In this document: positions 4,346 through 61,200 of the stretch, piece after piece
Layout: every line of letters begins with the position of its first letter
Position numbering within the stretch: the first letter of the stretch is position 1
Assembly (NCBI GenBank): GCA_963971425.1
Contig: OZ020515.1
Coordinates: 6,588,291 to 6,652,290 of the forward strand
DNA: 64,000 nt
Direction: 5' to 3'
DNA from: Bryoerythrophyllum caledonicum
Taxonomy: Eukaryota; Streptophyta; Bryopsida; Pottiales; Pottiaceae
The notes under the pieces: model-generated
The model's database searches: none
The model's input: only the letters and a program-made list of their open reading frames with translations
Told to the model about the DNA's origin: nothing
Made by a program: the position numbers and the translations under genes

Positions 4346-4479
4346 CCCCCCTAGCCGTCACTATACACCCCAACATGACCTAGATGGATTCACATTAGAA
4401 AAAAGAGAAGACCCGGAAATCCCACTACACACATACTTTAATTAAGCTACATATGACACTTGCCTACGTAACCTAGGAA

Positions 4480-6280
4480 ATAATAAGGCCCCCGGACCGG
4501 ACCGCATACCGAACTCTATCCTAAAAAATATGCCCTTGAGGTTCCATAAACTACTAAACCTTTTCTTCTCCCACTGCTATAAACAAAAATAAATCCCTGC
4601 TTCATGGAAAACAAGCGCAACAATCCTACTATACAAAAAAGGAGACCCATCCATGCTACCGAACCATAGACCTATTGCATTAGCCAATACCATCTATAAA
4701 CTATTTACAACCACATTCACATCAATACTATCATCATATGGCGAAAAACATAAAATACTGCATGATAGCCAAAAGGGGTTCCGCGCAGAAAGAAGCACTG
4801 CTAGACAAATCCAAACACTAATAGCGGCATTAGAAGATGCACAATTTACAAACCAAGACATATTTATTCTGTATGTTGACTTTAAAAATGCCTTTGGCTC
4901 CATTGACCACGCTAGACTTTTAGCCATAATGATGGACCTTGGATACCCCAAAGACGCCACCGCACTAGTGGGAAATATATACTCTGAATCCTCAACCTCC
5001 TACTTAGGAGAACACTTTGGTAAAACTAAACCCATAGCCATCCAAAGGGGAACAATACAAGGAGATACCCTAAGCCCATATCTATTCATCATATTCCTAG
5101 AACCACTACTTAGATGGCTAGATAGAGGCAACAATGGATACACATTTGGGACATCACAAACCACCATTAACTCCACGGCATACGCGGACGACCTTGCGGC
5201 CATAACCAACAAAATCAACGCCATAAAAATACAACTTAACAAAATAGACAGGTACTGCAAATGGACAGGCATGGATGTAGGTGTCCCAAAATGTGCCGTC
5301 ACTAGATGCCCAAATAAATAAAAAACAAACCCCACCGCATTCAAAGCCCTAATACAAACCTCTAATATTAATTATTGAAACCAACAAATACCCGTACTAC
5401 ACCAAAACGAACCATACATATATTTAGGAATAAATCTCGTCCCCTCCCTAAAATGGAAAATCCAAATCCATGCCACCACCAAAAAATTAACCAAACAATG
5501 CAAAGAACTAGTAGTTTGTCCGGCCACTATGAAACAAAAAATAAAAATGATCGACATAGTCTTAAGACCGGGTGTGGCATACAGCTTTTACGCGGTACCA
5601 TACTCAATGCCCGCCATAAAAAAACTGGACCAAAAAATAACTGCCACACAAAAATCCGTATGTGGCATGCCAAAATGTATGTCTAATATAATAACCCAAC
5701 TACCACACAACCTCTTTGGACTAGAAGCCTTCTCGCTAAAAAACGCATACCTTAGATGCATAGGAGAACAACTCCAGAACGCTCTAAATGACAGTGGCAG
5801 ACTTGGGAAAATATACAAGGGCCTATCACATCACATCCTCGCCCAATATAGGGGGGCCGAAAACATACCTAGAATAAAAAAGACAAATTGCACAAGATCA
5901 CCAATAACACGGACCTTCTTCTTACTAAAACACGTAGCAAAAGTCCACTTAAAAAGTACCCTCCCCAACTTTCTTATAGAACCAACAACACTAGAAAAAG
6001 TTTGGACTCTTGAAACACAAAGCCATAATACACTCAACACACAATTATCTCAAAAGTTATTACAAAAAATCCTCTCAAAAAATATCTACCAACTAAAACA
6101 AATTTCCCTACCTAACGGAACACACATTATGAACAATGAAGAATTTAAAACCTACCACTTCACCCCATCAAAACTAATTAAAAGTGCCCTCAAAATCGTA
6201 AGAAATCTTTTGCCACCCAATATACCCCCCTCCACCCAATACCCACACCGATACACATATACACTCCCACACACTTAGAG
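4480..6280 (+). pseudogene. LINE reverse transcriptase domain, copy 1
   Basis: RT motifs can be read in order: 'GPDRIPNSILK', 'PNHRPIALANTIYKLF', 'GFRAERSTARQIQTL', motif A 'YVDFKNAFGSIDH', motif B 'QRGTIQGDTLSPYLFI', and the catalytic 'AYADDLAA' at about 5178. Downstream comes 'PYIYLGINLVPSLKW', typical of the LINE RT thumb border. This is the only copy in the window that keeps the YADD box. Stop codons near 4590, 5320 and 5376 interrupt it, so no intact enzyme is made. Use: target-primed reverse transcription of the element RNA. Confidence 0.85.
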
Positions 6281-7009
6281 ACCCATTCATCACTCTAAAC
6301 AACGACATCACCCCAAGAAATACCCCCCCACAATCAATACACCCTCCCCACCCCCACCCATACCACCCCCACCCCCCAAACCACATCCTTGAAAACCCCA
6401 CCACATATCCCATTAACAACATCATACACCACGAATACAAGAACAAAATAGATAAAAACCAAATTGAAAACAATCACACTAGATATCTATGCCAATGGAC
6501 TCACAATAACTACACCTACAACAAATGGCTCCCCCAAAGAAACCTCTTCCCTAGACACAACCAAAACACCATTACACATAATACAAATAAATTGACACAA
6601 TATTATCAAAGAATTCAGCACAAATTCTACACCAAAATTATCCGAGCTCACCACCCACAAAATCAACCCCAGGACACAAGGTCCGTCATCCCACCCACAA
6701 TAATTCCCCTACTAAACATCTACACGACGGAGTGTAACCCCGAAAACGACATTCTCACCTCATCTAACACAATTAAAATTGACAAAGACCAAGCACACTT
6801 ATACGAAGAAGATGGACGACACCTCTTCACCATCCCAATCACTAGGCTCACATGGTTATGGAATCAATACAATACTAAACTACAAACCCCTACAAACATT
6901 GAACCAACAACCCAACCATTTGAAACCGAAGTTATATGGCTATACCAAAGATACAAACATAGAATTCCAAAAAATAACCCCCTTTAACTTACACAATATA
7001 CACTACCCA

Positions 7010-7674
7010 TATCTATACTAAACTCATTAATCTCCACATTCAACATCCAACACTCATACTTCTCCTCCCCCGTCACATGCTCCACCAAACTCAACAAATT
7101 TTACTCCCCCTTTGAAAGAGATAAAATATTCGGATCACTAGGTAAAGCCTTTGACCACAAATGGATAGGGAATGGTATGGCCCACCCCCACAATGAAGAA
7201 GAAACACAACAAGCACTACATTGGGCCCGCCTCGCCGCCAAACATGACCCAAACCACACCTCCACTCTAATCATAACCCCTGACAAAAATTGGTACCAAA
7301 ATCCTAACCCACACTCGGGCCCCTTTCTTGACACACACATCATTACACTATTTGAAGCGGACTCAATAACATACAAAGAACCCACTATTCCACTAGATCT
7401 AAAAAAGCCCAGAATTGAATCATCCACTGTACAAATAATATGCATCTACCACCAAAATCAAACTCTAGGCACACAAGAACAACTAGAAGAACTCTCCTCA
7501 ATAGCAAAGACTCTAAACATACACTGGATACTTACAAAATTGGCCCCACCAACGCCAATGCAAACACCCGTCAACAGAAACAAAAAATGGTCAAAACTAC
7601 ACTACAATAACAATACACTACTCTACACCCTAACCCCCCTACTCCTCCCGGAGTATCAAACTAACACCACCTAA
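7010..7674 (+). pseudogene. PCIF1-like (cap methyltransferase-like) block in LINE ORF2, copy 1
   Basis: The frame is open from about 7001 and has no need of its own ATG, being part of ORF2. Motifs in order are 'SYFSSPVTCS', 'FYSPFERDKIFGSLGKAFD', 'AHPHNEEETQQALHWARLAA', 'TLIITPDKNWYQ' and 'HIITLFEADSITYKEP'. From memory, human PCIF1 has 'ELFASPLNCYF', 'YCSAFPDTDGYFGSRG', 'ANPPFCEELMDAM' and 'FIVFIPEW' in the same order and spacing. The catalytic NPPF is replaced by AHPH here and also in copy 2, so this is a family trait and not decay of one copy. Function is unknown: a dead or altered methyltransferase, or an RNA-cap/RNA-binding fold. A profile search would decide. Confidence 0.55.
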
Positions 7675-8461
7675 ATTTAACCCCGCATATAGCTACTATA
7701 CTGACGGCTCCTTCAAACCGCCAAATCAAATTAGCCCGGGATCTTGGCGCAGAGAAAAAGCCGGTTATGGAATATACAACGCTACGAAAGAAATCAAACT
7801 AGCCAAAAGACTTCATGGACTACAAAATATCCTTAGAGCAGAACTAATGGCCATCCATAAAACACTAGAAATCGTCACAACAAAATACAACAATGAACCG
7901 GTGCACATATTTACAGATTGCATTAACGCACTATATTTATTAAACACCCAAATAACACATCCTACCCTCCATAATAGTCACCCCGACCAAATCATACTAG
8001 AATCAATGGTCCAAATGATACTAAAACGAGGACAAATCACAACCGTCCACAAAGTCCGAGCCCATGCTAATATTGATGGCAATGAACAAGCAGATAAACT
8101 TGCAAAAGAAGGAAGAGAAAAATCACATAAAAATGCCAAAGACCCACATGAACACGCCCACGCCACCCCTTACTATTTCCAAAAAGAAGATTGGACTTCC
8201 AAAGAAGACACCCCCGATAAAGGCCCGGTTAGATTCCTGAGTAAATACCTCAAAAAACAAGACCTATATAACAATCTTGACACAATCACAGACAACTTTC
8301 ATAACATAGAAAAGTGGACTAACAACAATGACATAGACAATGAACTCTCTACAATTTTTTGGAAAAATCCATCATCACCGATTCACAAATCACATGCCTT
8401 ATCAAATTCCGTACCGGTCAATACATGGAAAACGCCCGTAAACAACTCTTCTTTGGAATAG
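7673..8461 (+). pseudogene. LINE RNase H domain, copy 1
   Basis: The RNase H catalytic set is complete: D in 'YYTDGSF', E in 'LRAELMAIHKTLE', D in 'HIFTDCINALYLL' and D in 'GNEQADKLAKEGR', preceded by 'VHKVRAHANI'. It would remove the RNA strand after reverse transcription. The domain is in a different frame from the block upstream, so a frameshift lies near 7670. A second one near 8380 cuts it from the CCHC region. Confidence 0.85.
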
Positions 8462-8469
8462 AAAGATTT

Positions 8470-9165
8470 CCATCCATGACATGCCCCATATGCCCCTCAA
8501 CGGACCCCGACACATGGCTTCATGTTCTACTCAAATGCCAAAACCACCACATACACTCCCTAATTGTTAAAAGACATAATAAAGCGGTATGGGAAGTCCA
8601 AAAACTAATCATCTCTTACAATAAATCGAGATGTTTTATACTAATGAACGGCCGGCACTTTTAATAACAATCCACAAGAAAATACGGTCCCCCCTTGGCT
8701 ACTCCCATGCTCATGTGTGACCCAAAGATGCCATTGCAATGCTAGGCTCAAACCAGACATCCTCTGTGTTAGAGGTTTACCATACAATGATCCGCCACCC
8801 GACCACATCAACCAAGACTACACCATTCAATTCATTGAATTCACATATTGCAACGATAGATTTTCCCCGGAAACAATCCAAAATAAAATAGATAAATACT
8901 AACCCCTTATTGACAACATCATCGCCCTCGGATGGAATGTTGACCCCCTTATTGTAATCACATCCGGCACTCGTGCCACCACCTTTATCCCATCTATGAA
9001 AACTCTAGAAGATACCTTCAAGATACCCATTGAAACAATCAAAACCTCCTTTAAAAACATTAACACCATAGCTATTCAATATGCCATGTCCATTCTTCTA
9101 CATAAACGCAAAATCGAAAACAACCATGCCCTCCTCGATACCCAGGACCCCCCCCCCTTAAATTC
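8470..9165 (+). pseudogene. LINE CCHC knuckle and restriction-like endonuclease (RLE), copy 1
   Basis: A zinc-knuckle pattern 'CPICPSTDPDTWLHVLLKC' is followed by 'RHNKAVWEV'. About 65 residues later come 'RLKPDILC', 'IQFIEFTYCNDRF', 'NKIDKY' and 'GWNVDPLIVIT', the order PD...E...K..KY...GW seen in PD-(D/E)XK endonucleases of R2-like and Dualen-like LINEs. One stop (TAA for CAA) follows KY near 8900. The copy-3 equivalent (37967-38479) is open throughout. Role in the family: cleavage of target DNA. Confidence 0.6.
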
Positions 9166-9306
9166 TTCCCCCGCCTTGATTTATCATGACTAGTTGGTTT
9201 TGAGGTTTTTTACTACTTACTTGGTTTGTGGTTGGTTCGTTGGCTAGTTGCTTGGTTAGTGATTGGTTGGTTGGTTGGTTTGTGGTTCTTTGGCTACTTG
9301 TTACAT

Positions 9307-9446
9307 AGTGTCTACCCTCGAGAGAGGGAAGTAGTTCCAGCTTACTAATTCCTTGTCCAGTGGGCATGGTCTTAGTAGTGGAACGAACAGACACTTTATT
9401 CACGCCGGCCTCCTTTGGAGACTGGCGTTCTTCTTCTTCTTCCTCT
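9307..9446 (+). other. Structured LINE 3' UTR with (TTC)n tail, copy 1
   Basis: The outer stem is AGTGTCT (9307-9313) with AGACACT (9389-9395). Nested inside are GTTCCA/TGGAAC, CTTACTAA/TTAGTAG and a hairpin CTACCCT...AGGG..GTAG. A second hairpin follows at 9403-9427: CGCCGG-CTCC-TTT-GGAG-CTGGCG. The element ends in TTC repeats (9429-9441). The same folds are in copies 2 and 3. It is probably the RT recognition signal. Confidence 0.7.
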
Positions 9447-19626: not shown

Positions 19627-19778
19627 CATAAATAACAACATAATTAAAAACAAAAAAGATGTAATATAGTATATACATATAATAAAAAAACTATTGTAAA
19701 AATATGAAAAATTTACAAAAATATAAATAAAAAGAAAATCAAGATACATCGAAATTCTACTAAACAAACCAAAAACAA

Positions 19779-20820
<1,042 letters not shown>

Positions 20821-21620
20821 GAAACACATATATTACCACATGGAACGCCTCAACGTTAAACATTGCTTTACCATGCATCCACAATCTAACCGCCCACACC
20901 AACACACCACCCGCCATAATTGCCATACAGGAAATTAAACTAACCGCTATTAAATCCACAAAATACATCCAAAAAACATTCCCCGATTATAAACTTATAT
21001 TTAATAACACTTACTCTCTCACACGATGCATCCAACAACGAAGACCATATACACCGGCAAGAGGAGGTCTACTCATGCTCATACACCAATCATATGCCTT
21101 CCCCGGGAATATTACTAAAATCCCTACCCCGGCTAATATATCACCATATCTTCAAATTATTGAAATTACTCACTGACCTCTCCAACCATGGCTCATTCTT
21201 CATCTATACATGCTTTCGCACATAGAAGACTCTAGGCATATTCCAGAGATTCAAAATTCCATCACCTCACAAATAAATACACATTAACCATACAATAATA
21301 CTTTGCGGAGACTTCAACCGAGACATCGCCCTTATTGGACGACAAAATGGAGGGGTTTTTACCCCCCACTTGACATAGACTATCAATGGCAAAATTATAC
21401 GAATAACCTAGAATTATATTTAATCCCAACTGATACACAATACTCTCGTCAAGGTGGACTTAATTACACGCACACTAGCCTAATTGATGGATTTTACATT
21501 AAAACATCTAACCATACCCGATATACATCTAACACCAATACCACAACCAACTTAAACTCGGACCACTTCCCAATCCAACTCAATATACCTCACAACACCC
21601 TTATAAGTAGACCTCATACA
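20821..21620 (+). pseudogene. LINE AP endonuclease (APE) domain, copy 2
   Basis: Endonuclease/exonuclease/phosphatase motifs appear in order: 'TTWNAS' (about 20833), 'IIAIQEIKL' (20918, catalytic E), 'LCGDFNRD' (21303), 'TSLIDGFYIK' (21475) and 'NSDHFPIQLNI' (21555). The set N, E, DxN and SDH is complete. Stops and frameshifts between 21175 and 21340 break it. The role in LINEs is first-strand nicking of the target. Confidence 0.8.
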
Positions 21621-22399
21621 ACCATCAACTCAAATGATATTAAAATACTAAATTCCATCCCAAAAGAAAACCTTGATAACTTTAATACAATATTCTTTGA
21701 AAAAAACTCACTACAAATAGACTTCCTTACAGATACTCTTTCTAACCACCAACACCTCACACACATACAATGGCAAGAAGCTTGCACGACTCTTGACAAA
21801 CTTATAAATGAAATTTCTACTACATTAGAAAAGACTTGTTCAGCGCCCCCGATTCCACAACTCACACCTAGAACCTCGAAACAAGGGGGGTATCTCCCGA
21901 GAAAACTAGCCAAAAAGTGGAAACAACATCTTGTCACATATCACACTATTTGTAAAACAATTTATAGTGCTAAAACTAACCAAAATTGGCAAACCCACCC
22001 CATACTCTACGAACTATAAAACCTCCGCCACCCTCAAATCCCACAAGTACCACTACCCAACACCCCCCACGAAGACTGGCTAAAAGACATTGCAATCATT
22101 GCAAAAGCTGCCAACAAATAAGCTCGGAAAATTACTACAAAATATGCAAGAGAGTGTCAAAAAAGCCATTTCTAAGTATCGTCAATTTTATGAAACTAGC
22201 CCAAAGAAAATTAATAGAAAAGTCTTTAAAAATAACACAAACCTACCACTAGACTGCATTTTAAATCAAAACAACAACATTCTAACCAACCCAGATGACA
22301 TCGCAAACGAAATACATTTTTAACAATCTATGAACAATAGACCATCTACCCCCCATGTCACTTCCAACCACAACATACATCAACATGCACGTGCGGAGT

Positions 22400-23330
22400 T
22401 AGGCAATACCCGTGGCATGATTTGGACGGATTTACCATGGATAAAAGAGGCGAACCATCAACACCTCTCCACACATATCATAACAGAGACACATACAACA
22501 TGTGCCTAAAAAATTTGGGAACCAACAAAGCCCTCGGCCCGGACCATATACCGAACTCAATTCTAAAAAACATGCCCCCAAGATTCCATGACCTTCTTTC
22601 ATTATTCTTCCTTCATTGTTACAAACAAAAATCCATTCCCGCATCTTGGAAAACAAGTTTAACAATCTTATTATACAAAAAAGGCAACCCATCCGTGCTA
22701 CCTAACCACCAACCTATTGCCTTAGCTAACACCATTTACAAATTATATACTAGCACACTAACATCAATATTATCGGCCTACGGGGAAAAACACCAAATAT
22801 TACACGAAAGCCAAGAAGGGTTTAGAGCCGAAAGAAGCACCACACGGCAACTTCAAACCCTCATTGCCGCTCTTGAGGATGTAAAATTCACTAATAAAGA
22901 CATTTACATACTCTACATTGACTTCAAAAACGCATTCGGTTCCATTGACCATCCTCAATTGCTAGCCATTATGAGTGATCTTGGGTACCCGGAAGACGCA
23001 GTCACACTGGTTGGCAATATATACTCCCAATCTACCACTACATACACTGGAGAATTCTTTGGTAATACACACCCTATCCCCATCCAACGTGGTACCATCC
23101 AAGGCGATACATTGAGCCCATACCTCTTTATTATTTTTCTAGAACCTCTATTGAGATGGCTTCAAAGAGGTTCTCAACCAATCACGGTCCACTATCGTAA
23201 CCAACCAATCCCGGTTCTCAACCAAAACCAACCCTATATATACCTTGGAATAAACCTAGTCCCATCGTTAAAATGGAAAATTCAAACTCACACTACCACT
23301 ACAAAACTTATTAAATAATGCAATGAACTT
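22400..23330 (+). pseudogene. LINE reverse transcriptase, copy 2, YADD deleted
   Basis: An open frame at 22422-23318 carries 'GPDHIPNSILKNMP', 'PNHQPIALANTIYKLY', 'GFRAERSTTRQLQTL', 'YIDFKNAFGSIDH' and 'QRGTIQGDTLSPYLFI'. After 'EPLLRWLQRG' it jumps to sequence equivalent to 'PYIYLGINLVPSLKW' of copy 1. The roughly 200 bases that encode YADD in copy 1 (5130-5380) are absent, so the enzyme is dead. Confidence 0.85.
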
Positions 23331-24860
23331 ACACTATGTCCGGCCACATTGCAACAAAAAATAAAAATGATTGATACTGTCATACGTCTGGGTATCTCAT
23401 ATAGTTTCTATGCGGTCCCCTACTCCATGCCCGCCATAAACAAATTTGATAAAAAAAATCATAGCCATACAAAAGAAAGTATGCGGACTCCCTAAATGTA
23501 CGCCCAATGTCATAACACAACTCCCCCACGAACTATTCGCATTAGAAGCTTTTTCCCTCAAAAATGCCTACCTAAGTTGCATTGGAGAACAACTCCAAAA
23601 TGCACTTAACGACAAGGGAAGACTAGGACTAATTTACAGTGGACTCCTTTGGCACATCCTTGCCATTTATGGAGGAGCACAATACCTCCAAAGACTTAAA
23701 AATCTGATTGCCTTCGGTCTCCCATTACCCGCACACTCTTTCTACTCAAAACAAAAGGCCAAACATTTCTAAAAAGCACACTAGAAGATTTCCTACTAGG
23801 CCCTACGTCGCTTGAACAAAATTGGGCAAATGAAATACATAACCTCCCTAGACTTGACTCACAACTATCCGCCAAACTCCTACAAAAAAAAAATTCCGCA
23901 AACATTATTGATCTAAAACAAATTACACTACCAAATGGAACACACCTTATGGACGACAAGAGCTACAAAATATTCTACAGTACCCCTCACAAATTAATAA
24001 AAAGTGCACTAAATATTGCTACAGAATGATTTTGTCATCCTCCATGCCTCCCCACATGCCCCAACCCTTGCACCACTCACGCCCCTCCCTACACACTTAA
24101 AGACCCGTACATCATTGGTCACAATGACATCCACCCCAACACCAACCTCCCATTAATCCCTCCAAGCCCGTCACATTCACGACCATATGCCCCTCCACCA
24201 CATATATTAAAAAATCCTTCCATGCACCCAATCAACAATATAACCGCGCACAAACATAGTAAGTACATTGACTCCAACAACATAAGCAAACAATATACGT
24301 CATACCTATGCCATTGGCCCCACAATAACACCACCTACACCAAATGGCTCCCGCAAAGAAATCTTTTCCCTTGGCACAACCCAAACGCTTCCTTACATAA
24401 CACCGAAATCCTCACACAATACTACCTTAGAACTCAAAACAGTTATTACCTGAATATCATACAATTACACCACCCACAAGCACAACCTCGAGATAGAAGA
24501 TTTGTTACGCCACCTCATATTATCCCCCTCCTCAACATCTTTACAACCGAATGCAACCCCAAAACTGACATCCTCGCACAAACAAATACAATCAAAATAC
24601 AACAAGATAATGCCCACATATACAAAGGTAATGGTAGGCACCTAATAACCATACCACTCACTAGACTACAATGGATGTGGAACCAATATCACAACGCACT
24701 ACAAACCCCCATTAACATTGAACCAATACCCCAAACATTTGAAACCGAAATTGTTTCGCTATGCCAAAGATATAAATACCGTATACCCAACAATGACCCC
24801 CTTAAAAATGCACACTACACACTACCCGACCCTATCGTGGACTACCTTATTACATCTCTG
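23331..24860 (+). pseudogene. LINE ORF2 connector between RT and PCIF1-like block, copy 2
   Basis: This is colinear with 5500-7000 of copy 1. Conserved text includes 'LPHELFALEAFSLKNAYLSCIGEQLQ' split over two frames, 'TKWLPQRNLFPW', 'LLNIFTTECNPKTDI', 'GRHLITIPLTRLQWMW' and 'FETEIVSLCQRYKYRIP'. No family is recognised. It may be the N-terminal helical part that accompanies the PCIF1-like fold. Confidence 0.5.
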
Positions 24861-25480
24861 AATATCACACATTCATACTTCTCATCTCCCGTTACATGCT
24901 CCACAAAAATTTCAAAGTTCTAAACTCCATTCGAACGTGATAAGATTTTTGGTTCTCTTAGTAAAGCTTTTGATTATAGGTGGAACGGAATAGGCCTTGC
25001 ACACCCTCACAACGAAGAAGAAACACAACAAGCAACACATTGGGCTTGCCTAGCGGCAAACAATGATCCCAACCACAACATCACCATTATTATTACTCCC
25101 GACACTCATTGGTACCACAACTCTAACCCACACTTAGGCCCATTCCTTGACTCTCACATCATAGTACTATTTGAAGCGGACTCTATGACTTACAAAGAAC
25201 CCACCATACCACCACAAATATAAACACCCCGCCTTGAACCAGCAACCCTACGTATCCTATGTATACATCACCAAACTCGAGAGATAGGCACTCTAGAAAA
25301 TCTCACTCATCTCACTTTGATAGCAAAAAATCTGAACAATAACAAGGTATACACCGCAATTGCCCCTCCCACACCTATTTCAATCCGTGTAAACCGTAAC
25401 AAAAAATGGTCTAAAACCCTCCACACAAACATATCCGCACTACCAATTACCAAATTGAGCCTCCCACTCCTCAACTTCCA
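24860..25480 (+). pseudogene. PCIF1-like block in LINE ORF2, copy 2
   Basis: The motifs are 'SYFSSPVTCS', then after one stop 'TPFERDKIFGSLSKAFD', 'AHPHNEEETQQATHWACLAA', 'IIITPDTHWYHN' and 'HIIVLFEADSMTYKEP'. The order and the AHPH replacement are the same as in copy 1, although the two copies differ at many other positions. This argues that the block was kept by selection while the family was active. Confidence 0.55.
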
Positions 25481-26100
25481 AATCAATACCGACCTTAAAT
25501 TTGACCCCAACTTTAGCTACTACACTGACGGCTCCTTTAAAGAACCAACTGAAGTAAGCCCGGGACATTGGCACCGAGAAAAAGCCGGTTATGGGGTATA
25601 CAATTCAACCAAACAAATAAAACTAGGCAAAAGACTACATGGACTCCAAAATATTCTAAGAGCCGAAATGATGGCTATACACAAAACCCTTAAGATAATC
25701 ACCACTCAATATCCAAACGAACCGGCTCACATTTTTACAGATTGCATAAATATATTATATCTTCTTAATACACACTTAAAACACCCCCACTTTACACAAC
25801 AGTCACCCGGACAAAACTATCCTCACATCTATGGTTGTAATGCTCCAAAATTGCACACAAATTACTACACTCCACAAAGTCCGAGCTCATGCTAATATCG
25901 CCGGCAATGAACAAGCCGACAAACTAGCAAAGGAAGGAAAAGAAAAAACCCACAAGAATGCCGAACACCCATACGAACACGCCCATGCCACCCCATACTA
26001 CTTCCATAGATATAAATGGCCCTCTATTGGCAAAACTCCCGATAAAGGCCCCATACGATTCTTGGACAAATACCTCAAAAAACATGATCTTGTAAATAAC
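25480..26100 (+). pseudogene. LINE RNase H domain, copy 2
   Basis: Catalytic residues lie in 'YYTDGSFKEP', 'LRAEMMAIHKTLK', 'HIFTDCINILYLL' and 'GNEQADKLAKEG', with 'LHKVRAHANIAG'. A frameshift near 25830 separates the first three from the last. Otherwise the arrangement equals copy 1. Confidence 0.85.
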
Positions 26101-26209
26101 CTGGAAAAACTTACAGAAAATTTTCCCAATATTGATAAATGGACCAGCAACCCAAACATTCACAACGTACTGTCCAACAATTTTTGGAAAAAAACCATAA
26201 TTACGGACC

Positions 26210-26990
26210 CACAAATCACATGCCTAATCAAATTCCGCACCGGACAATACATGGGAAATGCCTGCAAACAACTCTTCTTCGGAATAGAAATATTTCCTAC
26301 AGTAACATGTCCAATTTGCAACACCACGGACCCGGACACATGGCTACATGTCTTACTCAAGTGCCAAAACCCCCATATACACTCACTAATTGTTAAAGAC
26401 ACAACAAAGTCGTATGGGCTATTCGTAAACTACTTGTATCATCAACCAAATCCCGTTGCTTCATTCTCATGAGTGCCGGAACCTTTAACGACAACCCACA
26501 AGAAAATACGGTCCCTCCTTGGCTATTAGCATGCATATGTTGCACTCGCAGATGCCACTGTAATGCAAGATTAAAACCAGACCTACTTTGCATTAGAGGA
26601 CTATCATACAAAGACCCCCCACCAAACCACATAGACCCTAGTCTCACTATTTAGTTTATTGAATTCACATATTGCAATGATAGATTCTCTCCAGACACTA
26701 TTGCAAACAAAACAAATAAATGTCAACCACTACTTGACGATATTCAAGCACTAGGATGGAAAGTAGACCTTCTCATTGTCATCACCGCGGGTGCTAGAGC
26801 CACCACCTTCATTCCCTCAATGACAACCCTTGAAGAAACATTTAAAATCCCCATCACTTCAATCAAAACCACTTTTTCAAATATTAACACTATTGCGATT
26901 CAACATGCTATGTCGATACTCCTACATAAACGAAAACTTGAAAACAACCAACCCCTTCGTGACACTTTGGACCCCCCTCCATAGACTTAC
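26210..26990 (+). pseudogene. LINE CCHC knuckle and RLE, copy 2
   Basis: The knuckle is 'CPICNTTDPDTWLHVLLKC' (about 26310). The RLE pattern follows: 'RCHCNARLKPDLLC' (26553), 'FIEFTYCNDRF' (26656), 'NKTNKCQPLLDDIQALGWKV' and 'VITAGARATTFIPS'. A frameshift near 26400 and a stop near 26650 break it. APE upstream and RLE downstream in one element is the Dualen/RandI arrangement. Confidence 0.6.
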
Positions 26991-27079
26991 ATATGCATTT
27001 CACCGTACACGCCCTCCCTCTTTTTGGAGACTTTTGGGACCTATGGATTTTGTTCTTGGCTACTTGTTACTAGGTACAT

Positions 27080-27210
27080 AGTGTCTACCCTCGAAAGGGG
27101 GAAGTAGTTCCATACTACTAACCCATGCCTGGTGGGCATGGACTTAGTGGTGGAATGAACGGACACTTTAATCACGCCGGCCCCCTTCGGAGACCGACGT
27201 TCTTCTTCTA
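27080..27210 (+). other. Structured LINE 3' UTR, copy 2
   Basis: The outer stem is AGTGTCT (27080-27086) with GGACACT (27161-27167). Inside are GTTCCA/TGGAAT, ACTACTAA/TTAGTGGT and CCATGCC/GGGCATGG. A second hairpin lies at 27175-27199, and the end is in TTC units. The changes relative to copy 1 keep pairing through G-U or compensating bases. Confidence 0.7.
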
Positions 27211-27215
27211 TGTTT

Positions 27216-37261: not shown

Positions 37262-38765
37262 ACTAAACACTCAAATAACACACCCTACCCTTCACAATAG
37301 CCACCCCGACCAAACCATACTAACGTCAATGGTCCAAATGTTACAAAACCGCACACAAATCACAACCCTCCACAAAGTGAGAGCCCATGCCAACATTGAT
37401 GGCAACGAACAAGCAGACAAATTAGCAAAAGAAGGCCGAGAAAAAACACACAAAAATGCTAAAGACCCACACGAACATGCCCATGCCACCCCATACTACT
37501 TTCAAAAAGAAGATTGGCCTTCCAAAGAAGATACCCCCGTCAAAGGCCCGATTAGATTTTTGGGCAAATATCTCAAAAAACAAGACTTCTACAACAACCT
37601 TGACACAATCTCAGATAACTTCCTTAACATAGAAAAATGGACTAACAACAACGACATAGACAATGAACTCTCTACTAATTTTTGGAAAAACCCCATCATA
37701 ACCGATTCACAAATCACATGCCTTATCAAATTCCGCACCGGTCAATACATGGGAACGCCTATAAGCAACTCTTCTTTGGAATAGAAAGATTCCTATCCAT
37801 AACATGACCCATATGCCCCTCAACGGACCCCGACACATGGCTTCATGTTCTACTCAAATGCCAAAACCACCACATACTCTCTCTAATTGTTAAAAGACAT
37901 AATAAAGCGGTATGGGAAGTCCGAAAACTAATCACCTCCTACAATAAATCGAGATGTTTTATACTAATGAACGCCGGCACTTTTAATAACAATCCACAAG
38001 AAAATACGGTCCTCCCTTGGCTACTCCCATGTTCCTGTATGACCCAAAGATGTCATTGCAACGCTAGGCTCAAACCGGACATCCTTTGTGTTAAAGGTGT
38101 ACCATATAATGACCCACCACCCGATAACATCAACCAAGACTACACCATTCAATTCATTGAATTCACATATTGCAACGATAGATTTTCCCCAGAAACAATC
38201 CAAAATAAAATAGATAAATACCAACCCCTTATTGACGACATCATTGCCCTCGGATGGAAGGTGGACCCCCTTATTGTAATCACATGCGGCGCTCGTGTCA
38301 CCACCTCTATCCCATCTTTGAACACTCTAGAAGATACCTTCAAAATACCCATTGAAACAATTAAAAACACCTTTAAAAACATCAACACCATCGCTACTCA
38401 ATATGCCATGTCCATTTTACTATATAAATGCAAAATTGAAAACAACCAAGCCCTTCCCGATACACAAGACCCCCCTTAATTCCTTTCCCCCGCTTCGATT
38501 TGTCTTGATTGGTTGGTTTTGTGGTTCTTGGCTACTTGCTTGGTTGGTTTGTGGTTTTTGGCTACTTGCTTGATTAGTTGGATGTTTAGTTGGTTGGGTG
38601 TTTAGCTTGGCGGGTTTCTGGCTACCCGTTACATAGTGTCTACCCTCGAAAGGGGGAAGTAGTTCCAACTTACTAATTCCTTGTCCGGTGGGCACGGTCT
38701 TAGTAGTGGAACGAACAAACACTTTATTCACGTTGGTCCCCTTCGGGAACCGGCGTTCGTCTTCT
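37262..38765 (+). mobile_element. LINE copy 3, strongly 5'-truncated
   Basis: It starts inside the RNase H domain ('HPTLHNSHPDQ', 'LHKVRAHANI', 'GNEQADKLAKEGR') and runs to the structured 3' UTR. It is visibly more similar to copy 1 than to copy 2. A frameshift near 37760 separates the RNase H part from the CCHC/RLE part. The left junction near 37262 shows no clear target duplication. Confidence 0.85.
37967..38479 (+). pseudogene. LINE RLE domain, copy 3 (open reading frame)
   Basis: A 170-residue frame holds the whole C-terminal endonuclease region: 'RCHCNARLKPDILC', 'TIQFIEFTYCNDRF', 'QNKIDKYQPLIDDIIALGW', 'PLIVITCGARVTT'. It is the best copy for testing whether the C-terminus is a PD-(D/E)XK fold. 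It is only the end of ORF2 and would not be translated on its own. Confidence 0.6.
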
Positions 38766-38770
38766 TCTTT
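38635..38770 (+). other. Structured LINE 3' UTR, copy 3
   Basis: The outer stem is AGTGTCT (38635-38641) with AAACACT (38717-38723), which has one mismatch. The second hairpin is CGTTGGT-CCC-TTC-GGG-ACCGGCG, fully paired with G-U wobbles where copy 1 has CGCCGG. Before it lies a variable TTGG-rich tract (38508-38620), also seen in copy 1 (9190-9300) but not in copy 2. The end is TTC-rich. Confidence 0.7.
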
Positions 38771-59372: not shown

Positions 59373-60825
59373 GTGAAGATTGAAGACCGCAAAGTTAAAG
59401 GTATTATACACATACCAACTCATTTTTTCTACAAGTTCTACATAGTACTTAGTAATTACTATACCAATAGACATTACATAGTAGAATACAAGGGAATACT
59501 TATAGTGCTACACCTTGTAGTTTCTACCACAATAACAATATTATACATAGAACAATACAGAGTAGAATATATGGAAGTATACATAGTAGAATACCCCATT
59601 TTATACTATATTAAAACAAAAAATAAATACATATATTATATTGAATACATATTGTCCAGTACAAGTAAATACACTTGTATTCATACTGACATAAATACCA
59701 GGTCAGCTACTGGTATGAATATAGATCCAAAAATTGATACAAGTACTGGTATAAACTCTAGTATAAACACCAACGTATATACTAGAAAGAATACCGACAT
59801 AAATATTGACAAAGATACTGAAATAAATACTAACAAAAATATCGGTATACATATTGGCATAAATACTATTACCAATACACATAATAACACACCTACTCAT
59901 TATATACTAGTGTTGATACAAGATTATCTAATACTCCCACAAACACCATTACAAATAATAGCTCAGACACTACAATAAACAGACATACACACAAATGCAG
60001 AGTGCAAAACAAGGAATATAACTCTCTCCACACAATTGATAAATCAAAAGACACAAACATCAACAAAAACACATGCAATAATTCAACCCCCGGAGTATAT
60101 CTACTAAACATCATTACAATACATTTACAAACGCATATTCCACTCACAAGTATAAACACAAAAATACTCTCGTATCAAATAACAAAAATATTGACGAAAA
60201 ATATTGACGAAACATCCCTCTTCTTATTACGTGGTGACATTGAACAAAATCCGAGGCCTATGCCAAATGTACTACACAATCATCCTTCAATACACAAGAA
60301 AAGAGAACAAATGTACTTTATTCCAAGTACTATCAAATTTCAACCGAAATACCAACATCTTGCAAAGTTATACGCGCCCATTGTAAAAACCTCCCACACG
60401 CTTTCTAATTGATACAACATCACATATCCACATTTATATCGGTATATACTATATCCAAACAATACAACATTTTCCCCCATCATACACAATATATGCTATC
60501 ATAATTACAATTAGCCCATCTTTAGAATCATGCAACTACATAATCTCGTCAAATACCCAACAAGACTCACATACTATTTGGACAACTAACTTACTACACA
60601 TACTTGCGGCCCTAGAGAATCCCCACGAGCGACATATTGCCACCGAGCACAAATATACTCTTTTTCAGAAAAATAACCAAAACATAATAAATCCATTGGA
60701 CTTAATTCACAACAAACTATACGATAGCATACACAAACACAACTGTATAGAAGTAACCCCCCACAGACTAAAAAGCAAATTCCCTTTCCTCTCTCAGGAA
60801 TTAATTAATGAATCACTAAGATGTC
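59373..60825 (+). pseudogene. LINE element 3: inter-ORF region and ORF2 start with 2A-like motif
   Basis: 59640-59900 is a degenerate repeat of about 12-bp units reading 'INT.TD' or 'INT.TG' in one frame. At 60217-60260 the text 'LFLLRGDIEQNPRP' is the 2A-like motif with G replaced by R, followed by 'MPNVLHNHPSIHKK' and 'YFIPSTIKFQPKYQHLA' as in copy 2. Homology with copy 2 ORF2 continues in broken frames to about 60825, where another element begins. Confidence 0.65.
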
Positions 60826-61200
60826 GGGTGCCTGGAAATGCAAGAAGATGGTTGAATAGAGCTCTGTAATTTCTGGTGAGGAGGGGGCAAGGGACTTAGT
60901 CTCAGAGAGTGAAGGCACGGACAACAGGAGGTTGTTGGCCCTGTTGCACGTCCAAAGTATGCTTCAAATCTAAGGGGTAGAGGAGGCTGTTTAGTTGTAT
61001 GTGTTGGAAAGGGACGTCAGAAACACTAGATATGCAAGAGGTGAACCGTGTTAGAGTTGTTAAAGCCATTTTTGTGTGGTGTTTGATCTGAAGCAAGGGA
61101 GCACATGTGTTGGTACGCAGATCTCACTCCTTATACACTTCCACGGCAGATCTCAGTTAGATCTAGTGAGGGGGTACCGAAACTAAACACCTCTCCCGTG
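60826..61200 (+). repeat. LINE 5'-end repeat (R1), copy 3
   Basis: Related to the reverse complement of 4031-4345 and to 12640-12750: 'tggtgaggagggggcaaggg', 'ggacttagtct', 'gaggttgttggcc'. It cuts into the ORF2 of element 3, so it marks the 5' end of a younger element that leaves the window on the right. Confidence 0.65.

What the first reader, a model, noticed from the sequence alone, without database searches (positions are those of the whole stretch)
7010..7400. PCIF1-like methyltransferase block inside a LINE ORF2
Between RT and RNase H, copies 1 and 2 (24860-25230) carry 'F-S-S-P-V-T-C', 'F..D..FGSL.KAFD', 'AHPHNEEE' and 'I.TPD..WY', in the order and spacing I recall for PCIF1 ('FASPLNC', 'F.DTDGYFGSRG', 'ANPPFCEE', 'F.VFIPEW'). 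PCIF1 methylates the cap-adjacent adenosine of mRNA. A LINE that carries a cap-recognising or cap-modifying fold could mark or protect its own RNA, or select capped templates. The NPPF catalytic motif is AHPH in both copies, so a non-catalytic role or altered chemistry is possible. I do not know of this domain in LINEs.
Basis: partly seen in the sequence, partly recalled or inferred. Interest (0 to 1): 0.82.

Follow-up and report, generated by a model that had tools for sequence, protein, structure and literature searches.

The report
RNA-cap methylase relative in jumping gene
A self-copying DNA element, present in many copies in a genome that looks plant-like, carries in its copying enzyme a conserved relative of the protein that marks the start of messenger RNAs, but with the usual catalytic residues replaced, which suggests a new job for an old RNA-modifying protein.

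Summary
Frame 7000-7671 matches Pfam PF12237 above its cut-off (32.0 vs 31.1 bits); so do 28 of 28 aligned family members at E <= 0.01 and 150 of 150 scored genomic places. Against solved structures the family profile finds PCIF1 first (E 0.004 and 0.05); one divergent copy alone reaches it at E 1e-5, another does not. PF12237 is the CAPAM-type methyltransferase, not a WW domain (PMC7641849, passage). The domain lies between reverse transcriptase and RNase H of a LINE whose family has long open copies; its core has dN/dS 0.06-0.11, near APE and RNase H, against 0.31-0.38 in the linker before it. Motif IV is not NPPF: aligners pair NPPF with HPH(N/T/S); AHPH stands in 64 of 68 distinct copies. 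The PCIF1 catalytic residues were thus replaced by another fixed set, not merely eroded. I read it as a probably non-methylating nucleic-acid (perhaps cap) binding module; altered chemistry is open. Fold prediction was uninformative, and no other eukaryote could be searched. No held paper that I saw describes it; a key 2016 survey was not readable.

The parts
4356..9438 (+). LINE copy 1, without the 5' part of the element and with frame breaks: RT to the 3' (TTC)n tail
   Evidence: tblastn with the L067 reading frame 4356-9154; blastn to L067 ends at 9438
4653..5321 (+). Reverse transcriptase domain of copy 1
   Evidence: RVT_1 E 6e-26
6817..7671 (+). PCIF1/CAPAM-like domain of copy 1 (one TAA at 6985-6987); PF12237 match 7003-7284
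   Evidence: PF12237 32.0 bits; phmmer to PCIF1 6irv E 0.02; family alignment A1
7060..7080 (+). FSSPVTC, aligned to FASPLNC of PCIF1 (active-site loop)
   Evidence: S126, S127, T130, C131 in 68 of 68 distinct copies
7117..7164 (+). RDKIFGSLGKAFDHKW, aligned to D.D..FGSRG..LDF of PCIF1
   Evidence: near invariant
7180..7194 (+). AHPHN, aligned to ANPPF (catalytic loop) of PCIF1
   Evidence: AHPH in 64 of 68 distinct copies
7676..8457 (+). RNase H domain of copy 1 and following region
   Evidence: RNase_H E 1e-14
20113..27212 (+). LINE copy 2, more divergent, from the 2A-like motif to the 3' end
24636..25499 (+). PCIF1-like domain of copy 2 (two TAA stops in frame)
   Evidence: PF12237 22.7 bits, below the cut-off; 68% identical to copy 1 over 218 aa
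20151..20177 (+). 2A-like motif GDIETNPSP at the start of copy 2 (degenerate NPGP)
   Evidence: pattern scan; GDIETNPGP in L067 and L031

Best explanation
A LINE-type retrotransposon family of this genome has, between RT and RNase H of its long polyprotein, a domain descended from the PCIF1/CAPAM clade of adenine methyltransferases. Shown: homology, position, presence in at least three subfamilies, and purifying selection. Inferred: because N and F of NPPF are replaced (by H and N/T/S) while the neighbouring motifs (SSP.TC, RD..FGS.GKAFD.KW, A.P) stay fixed, the domain most likely no longer methylates the N6 of adenosine but keeps a ligand pocket. I think it acts as a binding module of the ORF2-type protein that grips the element's own RNA, plausibly its capped 5' end, beside the RT, and so favours copying of its own, complete transcripts.
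For: PF12237 over the cut-off in 150 of 150 scored places (2614 candidates) of the own genome, found in 0 of 14 control genomes, all prokaryotic as far as named; 28 of 28 members; PCIF1 the two top PDB hits of the profile, E 1e-5 for L068 alone. Core dN/dS 0.063-0.110 between L067 and L032, L035, L031 and the window, linker 0.308-0.376; 0.02-0.28 in the 39 of 55 pairwise core comparisons where dS could be computed. AHPH 64 of 68, A and P 68 of 68. Columns fixed in all rows with letters: 19 of 40 in the two motif stretches 120-132 and 144-170, 56 of 281 elsewhere. In PCIF1, N553/F556 mutants are the standard dead enzymes (PMC10544176, passages); Drosophila PCIF1 has F to H, flies lack m6Am (PMC9479742, passages), and the fly protein still binds the polymerase tail (PMC9916840, passages).
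Against: No binding or activity data. The m7G site of PCIF1 lies between helical and methyltransferase domains (PMC9916840), and no helical-domain homologue was detected in the LINE. The model had pLDDT 31 and supports nothing. L041 alone did not find PCIF1 in PDB at E <= 10, though it matches PF12237. L032, L035, L031 and window copy 1 are of one subfamily, so the four dN/dS values are not independent, and 16 of 55 pairs are saturated at synonymous sites. The rest of the domain is also well conserved (mean column identity 0.80-0.87 against 0.87-0.90 in the motifs).
Confidence: 0.42

Rival explanations
1. It is a working methyltransferase with changed chemistry or target: AHPH forms a different active site on the same fold and modifies the element's RNA or cDNA.
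For: The FGS.GK stretch and the replaced motif IV are both nearly invariant, and selection on the core is near that on APE and RNase H, as expected of an enzyme rather than a relic.
Against: Amino-methyltransferases use N/D/S-P-P-aromatic at this place (recalled), and NPPF mutants of PCIF1 are inactive (PMC10544176, passages).
Confidence: 0.2
2. It is only a structural connector between RT and RNase H that derives from a methyltransferase; no ligand is bound.
For: Position between RT and RNase H; PCIF1 catalytic residues absent; conservation is also high outside the motifs.
Against: Fixed columns are about twice as dense in the two motif stretches (19 of 40) as elsewhere (56 of 281), and they are the PCIF1 loop motifs.
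Confidence: 0.25
3. Cap-adjacent adenosine methyltransferase activity as in PCIF1.
For: Homology.
Against: NPPF in 0 of 68 distinct copies.
Confidence: 0.05
4. Chance or compositional similarity.
For: The region is rich in T, N, P and H; copy 2 is below the Pfam cut-off; L041 alone misses PCIF1 in PDB.
Against: 8.1 to 18.3 s.d. over shuffles in 28 of 28 members; matches limited to this block; PF12237 matched also by members only 55-60% identical to L067.
Confidence: 0.02

Closest known systems
PCIF1/CAPAM cap-adjacent adenosine N6-methyltransferase (PF12237)
   Same: Sequence of the methyltransferase part over about 100-135 residues: F.SP..C, D..FGS.G..(F/L)DF, A.P...E, in order and spacing.
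   Different: NPPF replaced by HPH(N/T/S); embedded in a LINE polyprotein; helical domain and WW domain not detected in the parts scanned.
Drosophila PCIF1 (NPPF with F to H, catalytically dead)
   Same: A PCIF1 relative kept after change of the catalytic motif (PMC9479742, PMC9916840, passages).
   Different: A host gene with only F changed; here N, the second P and F all differ.
SymbioLINE-Dnmt, SymbioDIRS-Dnmt3 and KnitGypsy-Dnmt3 retrotransposons (PMC5890265)
   Same: Retroelements that took in a nucleic-acid methyltransferase and keep it under purifying selection (abstract, discussion and passages seen).
   Different: C5-cytosine enzymes, mostly in an ORF upstream of the RT in the LINE, or in Pol of gypsy; KnitGypsy keeps the key residues, and the tested SymbioLINE enzyme did not methylate DNA in yeast. 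Here an adenine-type domain between RT and RNase H.
DIRS elements with Dam-like adenine methylase
   Same: Adenine-methylase-type domain in a retroelement polyprotein (passages in PMC5890265 and PMC6338049).
   Different: Tyrosine-recombinase elements, Dam-like and not PCIF1-like.

Membership tests
PCIF1/CAPAM enzymes | PF12237 domain by profile | tested here: met
   32.0 bits vs 31.1 for copy 1, 22.7 for copy 2; 28 of 28 at E <= 0.01; 150 of 150 scored places over the cut-off
PCIF1/CAPAM enzymes | NPPF catalytic motif | tested here: not met
   HPH(N/T/S) in the aligned place; AHPH 64, AHPY 2, APPH 1, ADPH 1 of 68
PCIF1/CAPAM enzymes | N-terminal WW domain | tested here: inconclusive
   No WW family at E <= 1 in the six L067 pieces that belong to this frame; residues 631-750 were in no piece, and the first 620 of 3087 codons of that frame lie outside L067
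PCIF1/CAPAM enzymes | Helical domain forming the m7G site | tested here: inconclusive
   No match upstream of the methyltransferase part; model too poor
PCIF1/CAPAM enzymes | Rossmann methyltransferase fold | tested here: inconclusive
PCIF1/CAPAM enzymes | m6Am formation on capped RNA | not testable with these tools
   needs an assay
LINE (non-LTR retrotransposon) | Reverse transcriptase of the RVT_1 type | tested here: met
LINE (non-LTR retrotransposon) | APE-type endonuclease upstream of RT | tested here: met
   Exo_endo_phos 29.1 bits vs 24.5 in L067
LINE (non-LTR retrotransposon) | Simple-repeat 3' tail | tested here: met
   Shared sequence ends in TTC repeats in L067, L031, L032 and both window copies
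LINE (non-LTR retrotransposon) | Absence of long terminal repeats | not tested
   no search for terminal repeats was made

The most novel reading that the evidence does not exclude
A LINE captured a cap-methyltransferase relative and rebuilt its motif IV into a conserved AHPH site, giving its copying protein either a cap or 5'-end reader or a new RNA- or cDNA-modifying activity used in retrotransposition.
Probability: 0.45. Interest if true: 0.85.

Novelty: new variant of a known kind. Interest (0 to 1): 0.7.

Why it matters
How LINE proteins choose their own RNA and finish its 5' end is an open question (recalled). A pocket-type domain from the cap-methylase lineage, fixed beside the RT in a family with open copies, gives a direct handle on it. 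It would also extend retroelement capture of methyltransferases from DNA-type enzymes to the mRNA-cap clade, and offers a natural case of a methyltransferase whose catalytic motif was replaced by another conserved one. [quoted passage not shown] the plastid contigs of this assembly look bryophyte-like (recalled).

Tried and rejected
Viral contigs (15 pattern matches, none a relative) and prokaryotic genome contigs (62 pattern matches, none a relative); each scan used only two peptide patterns chosen by the tool. A PCIF1 fragment against the own genome gave 150 scored places of 355 candidates. I did not check each: the three loci cut (L068-L070) are LINE-type copies with AHPH, AHPH and AHPY, and at least four more places are ones already listed, the window itself among them. 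No host PCIF1 was recognised, but an intron-broken gene could be missed. The PDB, PHROGs and NCBIfam searches of the C-terminal part gave nothing convincing, so the restriction-like endonuclease that KPD...IEFT suggests stays a recalled resemblance.

Literature: I judged titles and abstract beginnings only, and most lists were capped: 20 of 52 listed; 2 of 2; 7 of 7; 1 of 1; 12 of 30; 10 of 381; 12 of 930; 3 of 2121; 17 of 17, terms PCIF1 and transposon. None listed describes PCIF1 in a LINE. Iyer et al. 2016 on eukaryotic adenine methylases and Boulias 2019 are not held, so an earlier mention there cannot be excluded. Chance and canonical PCIF1 activity were rejected for the reasons under rivals.

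Mended on checking: my notebook says AHPHNEEE in 30 of 30 loci; one search translated the minus-strand loci wrongly, and the valid count is that.

Full report
What is there. The + strand frame starting at 7000 reads TLPISILNSLISTFNIQHSYFSSPVTCSTKLNKFYSPFERDKIFGSLGKAFDHKWIGNGMAHPHNEEETQQALHWARLAAKHDPNHTSTLIITPDKNWY..., between an RT domain (RVT_1, E 6e-26) and an RNase H domain (E 1e-14); the frame translated is a different one. A second copy at 24636-25499 is 68% identical over 218 residues and has two stops.

Is it PCIF1? Pfam gives one family, PF12237 (PCIF1_WW): 32.0 bits against a cut-off of 31.1 for copy 1, 22.7 bits for copy 2. A paper states that this Pfam family is a CAPAM-like methyltransferase and not a WW domain (PMC7641849, one passage). 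Single-sequence search of solved structures with copy 1 gave only PCIF1, E 0.02. A profile of 28 members gave PCIF1 chains 6irx (E 0.004) and 6irv (0.05), then an unrelated viral glycoprotein entry at 0.81. Member L068 alone reached 6irv at E 1e-5; member L041 alone did not find PCIF1 at E <= 10. All 28 members match PF12237 at E <= 0.01. Each of 28 cores aligns to a 102-aa PCIF1 fragment 8.1 to 18.3 s.d. over 1000 shuffles, and of 119 windows along the L067 frame the five best overlap the domain. hhalign of the family profile to that fragment gave probability 81% and E 1e-5, for one template. Homology is, in my judgement, about 95% sure.

The element. The window lies in an unnamed 437-Mb genome. 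The copy-1 domain returned 150 of 150 scored places out of 4324 candidates; PF12237 returned 150 of 150 scored, each over the cut-off, out of 2614 candidates, and nothing in 14 control genomes. Only 150 are scored per search, so candidate numbers are not confirmed copies. Of the 150 rows, by my count 33 have an open frame of 3087 codons, so a young family with open copies exists. In L067, which holds 2467 codons of such a frame, the order is: 2A-like GDIETNPGP (consensus recalled), APE endonuclease (Exo_endo_phos 29.1 bits), RT (E 8e-27), PCIF1-like (47.4 bits), RNase H (cut over two pieces; 25.0 bits against a cut-off of 25.8 in the first; E 1e-14 in window copy 1), a CPxC...H...C motif and a KPD...IEFT motif. 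The sequence shared by L067 and the other copies ends, after a GCCGG hairpin-like stretch, in TTC repeats: window 9438 and 27212.

Conservation. Seventy-two places in the loci and window cover the motif; identical core strings were merged to 68 (L001 repeats window copy 1, and some long loci repeat short ones). In these AHPH is 64, AHPY 2, APPH 1, ADPH 1; the next residue is N 61, T 6, S 1. S126, S127, T130, C131, D145, F148, S150, F155, D156, W159, A165 and P167 are the same in 68 of 68. phmmer, hmmsearch and hhalign pair A-NPPF with A-HPHN. In alignment A1, with gaps ignored, 75 of 321 columns are fixed: 19 of 40 in stretches 120-132 and 144-170, 56 of 281 elsewhere; conservation outside the motifs is thus also considerable. 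At least three subfamilies are present: L067-like, window/L032-like, and L040/L051/L068, with L041 apart from all; L040, L041, L051 and L068 are 55-60% identical to L067. Core dN/dS against L067 is 0.077 (L032), 0.063 (L035), 0.083 (L031), 0.110 (window); RT 0.035-0.049; APE 0.110-0.120; RNase H 0.094-0.106; the linker before the domain 0.308-0.376; the part after the core 0.195-0.209. These four partners are of one subfamily, so this is close to one comparison repeated. Over 55 pairs among eleven copies, 39 gave a finite value, 0.02 to 0.28; 16 were saturated. The domain has been kept as protein by selection in the active lineage.

What it does. In PCIF1 the active-site loop is F479-P494 and the catalytic loop N553-C557; N553/F556 mutants are the standard inactive enzymes (PMC10544176, passages). 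The LINE keeps the first loop's F.SP..C and replaces N, the second P and F of NPPF. Drosophila PCIF1 has F to H and flies lack m6Am (PMC9479742, passages); a review calls it dead but able to bind the Ser5-phosphorylated polymerase tail (PMC9916840, passages). I therefore think N6-adenosine methylation is lost and a pocket is kept, used to bind the element's RNA, perhaps its cap. These steps are inference. That the replacement is itself fixed leaves altered chemistry open.

What failed. A two-row AlphaFold model had mean pLDDT 31.2 and pTM 0.22, every residue under 50, so no fold search was made. No relative outside this genome was found in the viral and prokaryotic collections; no other eukaryote could be searched, so age, origin and spread are unknown. 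LINEs of this family without the domain were not looked for.

Host. Plastid rbcL followed by accD is on small contigs, in two sequence types (L071 and L073 read, L072 not). From memory these look bryophyte-like; that they belong to the same organism as the window was not tested.

Novelty. Retroelements with methyltransferases are known: LINE, DIRS and gypsy elements with C5 enzymes (PMC5890265) and DIRS with Dam-like ones. One of the cap-methylase clade, between RT and RNase H, with a replaced and fixed motif IV, was in none of the papers listed (capped lists, see Tried and rejected). Iyer et al. 2016 was not held; a jumbo-phage paper speaks of a 'Clade 3' of adenine methylases defined by PCIF1 and cites earlier work for it (PMC7824862, one passage), so a listing there is possible.

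Noticed in passing
L067:6690-7380 and matching parts of L031, L032, L035 and the window: The C-terminal part has dS 0.22-0.32 between L067 and the other copies, while the other domains have dS 0.7-2.5, as if 3' ends were exchanged or homogenised between LINE families.
   Followed up: partly
window 20151-20177, 60233-60259; L067:357-383; L031:26; L032:29: 2A-like (StopGo) motifs just upstream of the APE part, several degenerate; L067 has a second, degenerate one 5' of it.
   Followed up: partly
window 8747-8902 and L067 frame residues about 2333-2372: C-terminal KPDIL...FIEFTYCND resembles the PD-(D/E)XK restriction-like endonuclease of other LINEs (recalled); with the APE domain this would be a two-endonuclease element. 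No convincing database match.
   Followed up: partly
window 37262-38766 and 60218-60833: Two further fragments of the same LINE family: a 3' fragment 89% identical in DNA to L067, and an old 5' fragment.
   Followed up: no
window about 19760-20103: Long triplet-repeat tract shortly before the 5' end of LINE copy 2 (reads as V, L or C runs in three minus-strand frames).
   Followed up: no
L071 and L073 (contigs C821, C894): Two different plastid rbcL-accD types in one assembly, suggesting a second plant in the sample or divergent copies.
   Followed up: no
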